NCBI GenBank assembly: GCA_003225005.1
Contig: QIAN01000263.1
Location: forward strand, 1 to 64,000
DNA: 64,000 bases
Direction of reading: 5' to 3'
Source of the DNA: Acidobacteriota bacterium
GTDB lineage: Bacteria > Acidobacteriota > Terriglobia > Terriglobales > Acidobacteriaceae
The notes under the pieces were generated by a model, which saw only the letters and a program-made list of their open reading frames with translations, was not told where the DNA came from and did not search any database. The translations under genes and the position numbers were made by a program. This document shows positions 33,288-35,464 of this stretch, one piece after another; position 1 is the stretch's first letter; every line of letters begins with the position of its first letter.

Positions 33288-33455
33288 CCTCTCGCGAGCG
33301 CGGAATTCCTGGCACGCCAACTACAGCTGAGGTGTGCCTTGCGGCCGGCAGCGACTCCCCATACGCGTAGCCGAGCGCCCGATTCGAAAAGCTCGTTCCG
33401 TTGTGTCACCGTCGATACATCCCCGTCAGCTTATGTTCTATACTTGGGCCTAGCG

Positions 33456-33670
33456 ATGGCGAGCAAATTGGCATTGTCGATTCGCATTTTTGGCCTGGGG
33501 CTCGTTAATTTGCCGGTCGTCTGTGCTACGCAAAAACCATACGTTCAGGGCAAGTTTCTCGCCATTCAGCAGAAAAGTAGAGATCGGGTTGACCTGTATT
33601 TAGTAACACGCCAATCACGACGGCCGTGCCCTATTTTGAAATCACCGTGGAATTCGGGGACCTCGATTAC
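33456..33670 (+). pseudogene. 5' half of small exported-protein gene split by IS element
   Basis: The fragment opens with a signal-like stretch (LALSIRIFGLGLVNLPVVCA), continues QGKFLAIQQKSRDRVDLYLV, then, after a single missing A in GTAACACG, NTPITTAVPYFEITVEFGD and LDY. It stops at TTAC, the IS200/IS605 target. The second half resumes at 35297 as VAEYTPRHSGEELPEAW. Together, with the missing base restored, they make a 127-residue protein that I recognise as a conserved acidobacterial exported family of unknown function. Both the IS insertion and the one-base deletion inactivate the gene, unless the deletion is a sequencing error. Confidence 0.7.
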
Positions 33671-33782
33671 CGAAAAGGCGCCGTAAAGCCCCCGCCCTTT
33701 AGGGCTGGGGATATAAGGCGTATTTTGCGAAGCAAAACCGATTTCGCGTGTATTAGATAGATGCCTGTGGTATAGTTCAAGC

Positions 33783-34184
33783 ATGGCACTAGAAGGGTAC
33801 AAATCGAACAATAATGTGGTGTATTCCAGCAAATATCATTGCGTGTGGACGCCCAAGTATCGGCGCAGCGTGCTTGTTGGTCCGATTGCAAAACGCTGTG
33901 AACAGGTGATTAGACAGACCGCTAAAAAATATCGGGCTGAAATCATCGCCTTGGAAATCATGCCCGACCACGTGCATGTGCTCCTCGAAGTGGACCCGCA
34001 GTTCGGCATCCACAGATTGGTCAAGAATCTCAAGGGAGTTTCATCGCACACCTTGCGGCAAGAGTTTCGCACATTGAAATCACGGCTACCCACACTTTGG
34101 ACGAATCGCTATTTCGTATCCACGGTTGGCGGGGCACCACTGGCGGTGATAAAGCAATATGTTGAAAATCAGAAAGACGTTTAA
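33783..34184 (+). CDS. tnpA: IS200/IS605 transposase, Y1 HUH type
   Basis: A 133-residue single-domain HUH transposase. The metal-binding pair is His63 and His65 (PDHVHVLLEV), and the catalytic Tyr126 lies in KQYVENQ. It cuts and joins single-stranded DNA at the element ends during replication, recognising the terminal hairpins. All key residues are present, so the element could be mobile. Length matches the family. Its 3' end overlaps tnpB by 26 bp. The ribosome-binding site before ATG 33783 is weak. Confidence 0.93.
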   Translation: MALEGYKSNNNVVYSSKYHCVWTPKYRRSVLVGPIAKRCEQVIRQTAKKYRAEIIALEIMPDHVHVLLEVDPQFGIHRLVKNLKGVSSHTLRQEFRTLKSRLPTLWTNRYFVSTVGGAPLAVIKQYVENQKDV

Positions 34185-35292
34185 GTACCGCTTATATCCC
34201 AACCGCAAGCAGCGGGAATCCCTGCTGGCCACGTTGGACGTGTGTCGCTATTTGTACAACGATGCCCTACAGGAGCGCCGCGAGGCTTGGAAGCTTTGCC
34301 GAAAGTCAATCCCATTCGCGATGCAGTCGGCACAGTTGCCGGCCTGCAAACAAGCCGATGCACCCATGCGAGGCGTGTATTCGCAGGTACTGCAAGATGT
34401 GCTGCACCGCGTGGATAAAACCTACAAGGGGTTCTTTCGCCGTGGCAACGGTTTCCCGCGATTCAAGGGCAAAGGCTGGTTCGATTCCTTCACCTATCCG
34501 CAAGCAGGTTTCCGTGTGGAAGGAAGCCAAGTATCACTATCGAAAATCGGCAATGTGAAAATCAAGTGGCACCGCCCGCTTGCTGGCGCAGTAAAAACGC
34601 TCACCCTGAAACACGAAAATGGCAAGTGGTATGCCTGTTTCTCGTGCATCGTGGACGTAGAACCACTACCTGCCAATGATTCTGTGGTGGGCATAGATGT
34701 TGGCTTGGAATGCTTCGCTGTCACCAGCGATGCGGAAATCGTGGACAACCCACGTTGGTTTGGTACTGCCCAAAAGAAACTGCGGGTTATGCAGCGCCAC
34801 GTATCCCGCTGCAGCAAGCGGTCTGGAGGCTGGCGTAAGGCGTGTATGTTTGTTGCTCAACTGCATCGCCACGTATTCAACCAACGCAACGATTTCCAGC
34901 ACAAGCTATCTCGTGAACTGGTAAATCATCATGGCTTCATTGCCGTGGAAGATTTGCATGTGAAAGGCTTGGCTGGCGGAATGCTTGCGAAGTCAGTACA
35001 GGATGCCGCGTGGTCAAGCTTCATCGCAAAGTTGTCCTATAAGGCTGAAAGTGCCGATAGGCTGCTGGTGAAAGTGAATGCCCGTGGAACCTCGCAACAA
35101 TGCCCTTGTGGTGCGCCTGTGCCCAAGAAACTTTGGGACAGGTTGCACAAATGCGCGGCTTGCGGTTTGAAAACAACCCGCGACCACGCATCGGCATTGG
35201 AGATTTTAAGGCGTGGACTGCGCCTGAGAACCGAAACGCCTGCGATAGCGGGCGTGGCTCTTGAAGCCCCGAGCTTTAGCTATGGGGCGTAG
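34159..35292 (+). CDS. tnpB: TnpB RNA-guided nuclease of the IS605 element
   Basis: A 377-residue TnpB with an intact RuvC site: Asp180 (VVGIDVGLECF), Glu264 (IAVEDLHVKG) and Asp342 (TTRDHASALEIL). A zinc-finger insert is formed by CPC near 315 and CAAC near 332. The N-terminal part holds the helix-turn-helix and WED-like regions (KTFKYRLYPNRKQRESL). TnpB proteins use an RNA copied from the right end of the element to cut DNA beside the target motif, which keeps the element in the genome after excision. By that logic the motif here would be TTAC. The size and residues indicate an active protein. Confidence 0.93.
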   Translation: MLKIRKTFKYRLYPNRKQRESLLATLDVCRYLYNDALQERREAWKLCRKSIPFAMQSAQLPACKQADAPMRGVYSQVLQDVLHRVDKTYKGFFRRGNGFPRFKGKGWFDSFTYPQAGFRVEGSQVSLSKIGNVKIKWHRPLAGAVKTLTLKHENGKWYACFSCIVDVEPLPANDSVVGIDVGLECFAVTSDAEIVDNPRWFGTAQKKLRVMQRHVSRCSKRSGGWRKACMFVAQLHRHVFNQRNDFQHKLSRELVNHHGFIAVEDLHVKGLAGGMLAKSVQDAAWSSFIAKLSYKAESADRLLVKVNARGTSQQCPCGAPVPKKLWDRLHKCAACGLKTTRDHASALEILRRGLRLRTETPAIAGVALEAPSFSYGA

Positions 35293-35312
35293 TCACGTGG
35301 CCGAGTACACGC
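35150..35312 (+). ncRNA. Predicted omega (right-end) RNA of TnpB
   Basis: In IS605 elements the guide RNA for TnpB runs through the tnpB 3' end and the right-end hairpin into flanking DNA. Here the scaffold would include the GAAGCCCC...GGGGC hairpin at 35266-35288, and the guide would begin at GTGGCCGAGTACACGC (35297 onward). The 5' limit is arbitrary; the call rests on knowledge of the family, not on a visible promoter. Confidence 0.4.
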
Positions 35313-35464
35313 CGCGGCACTCCGGAGAAGAGCTGCCGGAGGCTTGGAGGCCGGACGAAGCCGTACGCGGCAGAGTAGACAAGCATCGTCTTTATTTGCT
35401 TCGGCCCGATGGCAGCGAAATGCAATTCATCATCGAAAAAAAAGCACCACTCGGCAAGAAATAA
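35297..35464 (+). pseudogene. 3' half of small exported-protein gene split by IS element
   Basis: In-frame continuation of the 33456-33670 fragment: VAEYTPRHSGEELPEAW, then VDKHRLYLLRPDGSEMQF, ending at TAA 35462-35464. The frame joins exactly to LDY at the TTAC target when the IS is removed. The ORF track starts it inside the IS (35261), which is an artefact. The product family is of unknown function. It ends 33 bp before ppk1. Confidence 0.7.

What the first reader, a model, noticed from the sequence alone, without database searches (positions are those of the whole stretch)
33456..35464. IS605 element caught inside a small exported-protein gene, with its exact boundaries readable
The half-gene ending in ...EFGDLDY at TTAC (33667-33670) and the half starting VAEYTPRHSGEELPEAW at 35297 belong to one protein. 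Removing 33671-35296 joins TTAC to GTGGCC in frame. This gives both IS ends without a second copy for comparison, predicts TTAC as target and TCAC as the right cleavage motif, and shows recent insertion, because both halves are still readable.
Basis: partly seen in the sequence, partly recalled or inferred. Interest (0 to 1): 0.78.

Follow-up and report, generated by a model that had tools for sequence, protein, structure and literature searches.

The report
Ordinary IS608-like jumping gene, boundaries confirmed

Summary
Window 33671-35296 is a complete IS200/IS605 element (tnpA, tnpB, subterminal hairpins). Its ends were confirmed independently: five left ends in the same draft genome start directly after TTAC and four right ends stop at TCAC, in unrelated surroundings. 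A congener (G039) has an intact orthologue of the split gene that aligns without a gap across the junction (...AYLAEYTPR). Corrections: (1) the 127-residue protein is not one reading frame even without the element, since the left half is one base short near 33604 relative to the orthologue (383 nt, not 384). (2) "Recent" is not shown: the window copy differs by about 3-5% from most other copies. (3) TTAC/TCAC follow the known IS608 rule: TnpA matches IS608 TnpA (E 8e-50); the left pair AAAG/TTAC is as in IS608, the right pair is GAAG/TCAC where IS608 has GAAT/TCAA, apparently a compensatory change. The window copy has the only complete TnpA with an intact HUH motif in the assembly; two other copies at different sites share an H65P change, suggesting movement in trans. 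New member of a known kind; low surprise.

The parts
33456..33670 (+). 5' part of the interrupted gene (probable signal peptide), ending at target TTAC; carries a one-base deletion near 33604
   Evidence: tblastn/blastn against intact G039 orthologue L014; ORFs; L014 sequence
33667..33670 (+). TTAC target / left cleavage motif (CL), retained in the left flank
   Evidence: precedes all five left ends in the genome and a related element in an Acidobacteria gp1 MAG, L050
33671..35296 (+). IS200/IS605-family (IS608-like) insertion sequence, 1626 nt
33685..33688 (+). predicted left guide GL, AAAG, directly 5' of the left hairpin
   Evidence: sequence; same as IS608 GL (PMC5934647)
33689..33710 (+). 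left-end subterminal hairpin CCCC-C-GCCC-TTTA-GGGC-T-GGGG
   Evidence: DNA fold
33783..34184 (+). tnpA, 133 aa, Y1 HUH transposase; HVH at residues 63-65, Y126
   Evidence: Pfam Y1_Tnp 2.1e-42; IS608 TnpA 2a6m 7.8e-50; residue numbers
34159..35292 (+). tnpB, 377 aa; overlaps tnpA by 26 nt; RuvC residues D180/E264/D342 and zinc-finger cysteines present
   Evidence: Pfam OrfB_IS605, HTH_OrfB_IS605, Cas12f1-like_TNB; ISDra2 TnpB 8bf8 2.5e-48
35263..35266 (+). predicted right guide GR, GAAG
   Evidence: sequence; IS608 GR is GAAT (PMC5934647)
35267..35287 (+). right-end hairpin CCCC-G-AGC-TTTA-GCT-AT-GGGG; one base (35271) departs from three other copies and loses one pair
   Evidence: DNA fold; copy comparison
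35293..35296 (+). TCAC right cleavage motif (CR), last four bases of the element, directly after the tnpB stop codon
   Evidence: identical in the C272, C114 and C234-66.9kb copies
35297..35312 (+). first 16 nt of right flank: predicted guide of the TnpB omega-RNA (inference)
   Evidence: by analogy with ISDra2 reRNA (PMC8612924); not tested
35297..35464 (+). 3' part of the interrupted gene, VAEYTPRHSGEELPEAW...KKAPLGKK*
   Evidence: homology to L014, ppk downstream in both

Best explanation
A complete IS608-like member of the IS200/IS605 family inserted directly 3' of a TTAC tetranucleotide, without target duplication, in a small probable exported-protein gene lying upstream of polyphosphate kinase. 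Shown here: the exact ends, gene content, the split gene and the agreement of motifs with the IS608 rule. Inferred from IS608 and ISDra2: TnpA recognises the two hairpins on one DNA strand; guides AAAG and GAAG pair with TTAC and TCAC to position cleavage; the element moves as a single-stranded circle; TnpB, guided by RNA from the right end plus about 16 nt of flank, cuts the resealed site next to TTAC and so helps keep the element in place.
For: Five left ends after TTAC and four right ends at TCAC in unrelated surroundings. Gap-free alignment of the joined gene to the intact G039 orthologue, both followed by ppk. Pfam Y1_Tnp and OrfB_IS605/TNB. IS608 TnpA 7.8e-50 and ISDra2 TnpB 2.5e-48. HVH, Y126 and RuvC residues intact. 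IS608 CL/GL TTAC/AAAG and CR/GR TCAA/GAAT (PMC5934647), against TTAC/AAAG and TCAC/GAAG here. End hairpins fold better than shuffles when whole, z -2.2 to -2.4 in this copy. A TnpB with TTAC TAM is published (PMC12781874).
Against: No read-level or experimental evidence of transposition. The right hairpin of this copy carries a substitution that loses one pair. No Rfam RNA family matched, so the omega-RNA is inferred only. The G039 orthologue reads CTAT rather than TTAC at the site, so a true empty TTAC site in a close strain was not seen.
Confidence: 0.96

Rival explanations
1. The ends are shifted by four bases: TTAC belongs to the element and TCAC stays in the flank.
For: Both tetranucleotides are conserved in all copies, so copy comparison alone cannot tell which one is in the element; both choices keep frame.
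Against: The IS608 mechanism leaves TTAC in the flank (PMC5934647). A TTAC junction gives Y at the junction, as in G039 (TAT = Y); the shifted choice would give H.
Confidence: 0.03
2. The contig is a chimera joined at a repeated element, and the two half genes do not belong together.
For: Most other copies lie at contig ends, as expected where assemblies break at repeats.
Against: Both halves align without a gap to one orthologue in G039, with ppk downstream in both.
Confidence: 0.01
3. On the history of the host gene (compatible with the main explanation): the gene was already a pseudogene, by the frameshift near 33604, before the element arrived.
For: One base is missing relative to the orthologue in the left half.
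Against: The frameshift may equally have arisen after the insertion or be a sequencing error; no further stops are seen in the joined frame.
Confidence: 0.3

Closest known systems
IS608 (ISHp608, Helicobacter pylori), IS200/IS605 family
   Same: TnpA by sequence (E 7.8e-50), TTAC target, AAAG left guide, hairpins with guide at their 5' foot
   Different: Right motif TCAC with guide GAAG instead of TCAA/GAAT; the right hairpin ends only 5 nt before TCAC, which abuts the tnpB stop codon
ISDra2 (Deinococcus radiodurans), IS200/IS605 family
   Same: Overlapping tnpA-tnpB; TnpB homologous over nearly its full length (2.5e-48) with RuvC residues kept; expected right-end guide RNA
   Different: ISDra2 uses TTGAT; its TnpA is more distant (E about 3e-24)
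SfaTnpB
   Same: TnpB reported with a TTAC TAM (PMC12781874), as predicted here
   Different: Not compared by sequence here

Membership tests
IS200/IS605 (IS608-like) | Y1 HUH transposase TnpA with HUH motif and catalytic Tyr | tested here: met
IS200/IS605 (IS608-like) | subterminal hairpins at both ends | tested here: met
IS200/IS605 (IS608-like) | insertion 3' of a fixed short target without target duplication | tested here: met
   five TTAC left flanks; gap-free orthologue alignment
IS200/IS605 (IS608-like) | guides at the 5' foot of the hairpins matching the cleavage motifs by the IS608 scheme | tested here: met
   sequence compared with the IS608 motifs in PMC5934647; the pairing itself was not assayed
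IS200/IS605 (IS608-like) | single-strand circle excision and integration by TnpA | not testable with these tools
   needs biochemistry
TnpB RNA-guided nuclease | RuvC D/E/D and zinc finger | tested here: met
TnpB RNA-guided nuclease | omega-RNA (reRNA) from the right end | tested here: inconclusive
   RNA fold z -2.1; no Rfam match

The most novel reading that the evidence does not exclude
The window copy is the one remaining source of active TnpA in this genome, and a sub-lineage of copies with a broken HUH motif (H65P) spread by using TnpA made elsewhere; the right-end motif and its guide changed together relative to IS608 (TCAA/GAAT to TCAC/GAAG).
Probability: 0.45. Interest if true: 0.3.

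Novelty: new member of a known kind. Interest (0 to 1): 0.2.

Why it matters
It is a clean example of an IS608-like element whose ends are fixed by independent routes (sister copies, a related element in another genome, an intact orthologue of the split gene), with an apparently compensatory change in the right guide and cleavage motif. It predicts a TTAC TAM for a 377-aa TnpB. It does not change the picture of the family.

Tried and rejected
Rfam search of the element at E up to 1: no match. Pfam on the host gene halves and on the intact G039 orthologue: no family. Plasmid search for the host protein: one weak partial match, under a gene annotated nrdF, not pursued. A first fold of the right end was cut inside the stem (35268-35300) and was no better than shuffles, z -0.6; refolded with the whole stem it gave z -2.4. 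The G006 relatives of tnpA (about 80% DNA identity) have a different or degenerate downstream gene and no clear matching ends, so they were not used for the boundary test. Pairing the other copies' left and right contig ends into one broken gene gave no obvious match by eye. A paper on Halanaerobium IS605 elements held no motif data.

Full report
Observation. The window carries TTAC at 33667-33670, then 1626 nt, then GTGGCCGAGTACACGCC from 35297. The insert holds tnpA (33783-34184, 133 aa) and tnpB (34159-35292, 377 aa), overlapping by 26 nt. Pfam gives Y1_Tnp (2.1e-42) for the first and HTH_OrfB_IS605, OrfB_IS605 and Cas12f1-like_TNB for the second. The nearest solved structures are IS608 TnpA (2a6m, 7.8e-50) and, among natural proteins, ISDra2 TnpB (8bf8/8h1j, about 2.5e-48). 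The HVH motif (63-65), Y126, and D180/E264/D342 of TnpB are in place.

Ends. The draft genome (7.9 Mb, 550 contigs) has several, mostly at contig ends. Five left ends (window, C505, C293, C316, C177) begin to match exactly at TTAC, and four right ends (window, C272, C114, C234 near 66.9 kb) stop at TCAC; the flanks are unrelated. A related element in an Acidobacteria gp1 MAG (L050, TnpB 78% identical where it aligns) also reads TTAC|CGA...AAAG. The ends are therefore not in doubt, apart from the formal question whether TTAC or TCAC is the one left in the host. The IS608 mechanism and the tyrosine codon at the same place in the orthologue both favour TTAC in the host.

Host gene. A genome of the same genus (G039, locus L014) has an intact orthologue directly upstream of ppk, as in the window. 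The joined window sequence aligns to it without a gap across the junction...FEITVEFGDLDY|VAEYTPRHSGEELPEAWRPDE against ...FEVSVELRETAYLAEYTPRRAGEELPEAWRVGE (58 of 97 residues identical). More distant homologues in four other genera of the family (G057, G052, G049, G056) also lie next to ppk.

Correction to the host gene. The frame of the ATG at 33456 runs to ...RVDLYLV and continues as TRQSRRPCP; the frame that gives ...EFGDLDY is another one. The orthologue shows one base missing in the window near 33604. The two pieces add up to 383 nt. Whether this is a true second lesion or a sequencing error cannot be told here. It removes the argument that the gene was intact but for the element.

Age. 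The window copy is about 97% identical to C272, C234-66.9kb and C114 over the right part and about 95% to C316 over the left part; C293 is lower mainly through a deletion, and C505 is 95-99% in its two pieces. Over 1181 positions covered by at least two other copies, the window differs from all of them at 20. Differences between copies are at least as often amino-acid changing as silent in most comparisons, so much of the divergence looks like decay. These copies are not a fresh burst. The lack of further stops in the host gene suggests that the insertion is not very old, but no date can be given.

Which copy is alive. C316 and C293 both have H65P in the HVH motif, an extra alanine codon and an 8-nt deletion before tnpA, yet lie at different TTAC sites; C293 also has a frame-breaking deletion in tnpA. 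C505 lacks TnpA residues 23-93. The outgroup L050 has the base of the histidine codon, so H65P is derived. The window copy is the only one in the assembly with a complete TnpA and intact HUH motif. The simplest reading is that the H65P lineage was moved by TnpA supplied in trans; this is inference, and copies cut by contig ends cannot be fully judged.

Mechanism. In IS608 the cleavage motifs TTAC and TCAA pair with guides AAAG and GAAT at the 5' foot of each hairpin (PMC5934647). Here AAAG (33685-33688) stands at the left hairpin, and GAAG (35263-35266) at the right hairpin before TCAC. The fourth base of the right motif (A to C) and the fourth base of its guide (T to G) differ together from IS608, as pairing would require. 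That these two positions pair follows the IS608 scheme as I know it; no assay was run. The hairpins fold better than shuffled sequence when taken whole. In the window copy the right hairpin has G at 35271 where three other copies have T, which loses one pair; whether this lowers activity is unknown.

TnpB. By analogy with ISDra2 (PMC8612924), the 3' end of tnpB plus about 16 nt of flank would give the guide RNA, and TTAC would be the TAM; a TnpB with TTAC TAM is reported (PMC12781874). The stop codon of tnpB lies directly before TCAC, so the element's part of the RNA would overlap the coding sequence almost fully. The region folds with z -2.1, and no Rfam family matches.

Verdict. A well-read but ordinary IS608-like insertion.

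Noticed in passing
L003 (C316:1-606) and L005 (C293:1-525): Two sister copies at different TTAC sites share H65P in the TnpA HUH motif, an extra alanine codon and an 8-nt deletion upstream of tnpA; suggests spread by TnpA supplied in trans.
   Followed up: partly
G000 C234:66909-67482 (beyond the window end), L004: A second copy of the element in opposite orientation about 31.6 kb downstream on the same contig, cut by the contig end.
   Followed up: partly
L012 (C16:72-96): A 25-nt stub, one base different from the right terminus, ending TCAC, with no left arm of the hairpin; relic or assembly edge.
   Followed up: no
window 33423-33446: A TATACT-like stretch (GCTTATGTTCTATACTTGG) upstream of the interrupted gene is shared with the homologues in L015 and L016; possible conserved promoter of the gene upstream of ppk.
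   Followed up: no
L007 (C114:64995-65328): A 5'-truncated copy whose tnpB part carries an in-frame stop.
   Followed up: no
G000 C83, C450, C34, C535 (L061, L064, L067, L068): Other, more distant Y1 transposase genes or fragments (31-47% identical) in the same genome.
   Followed up: no
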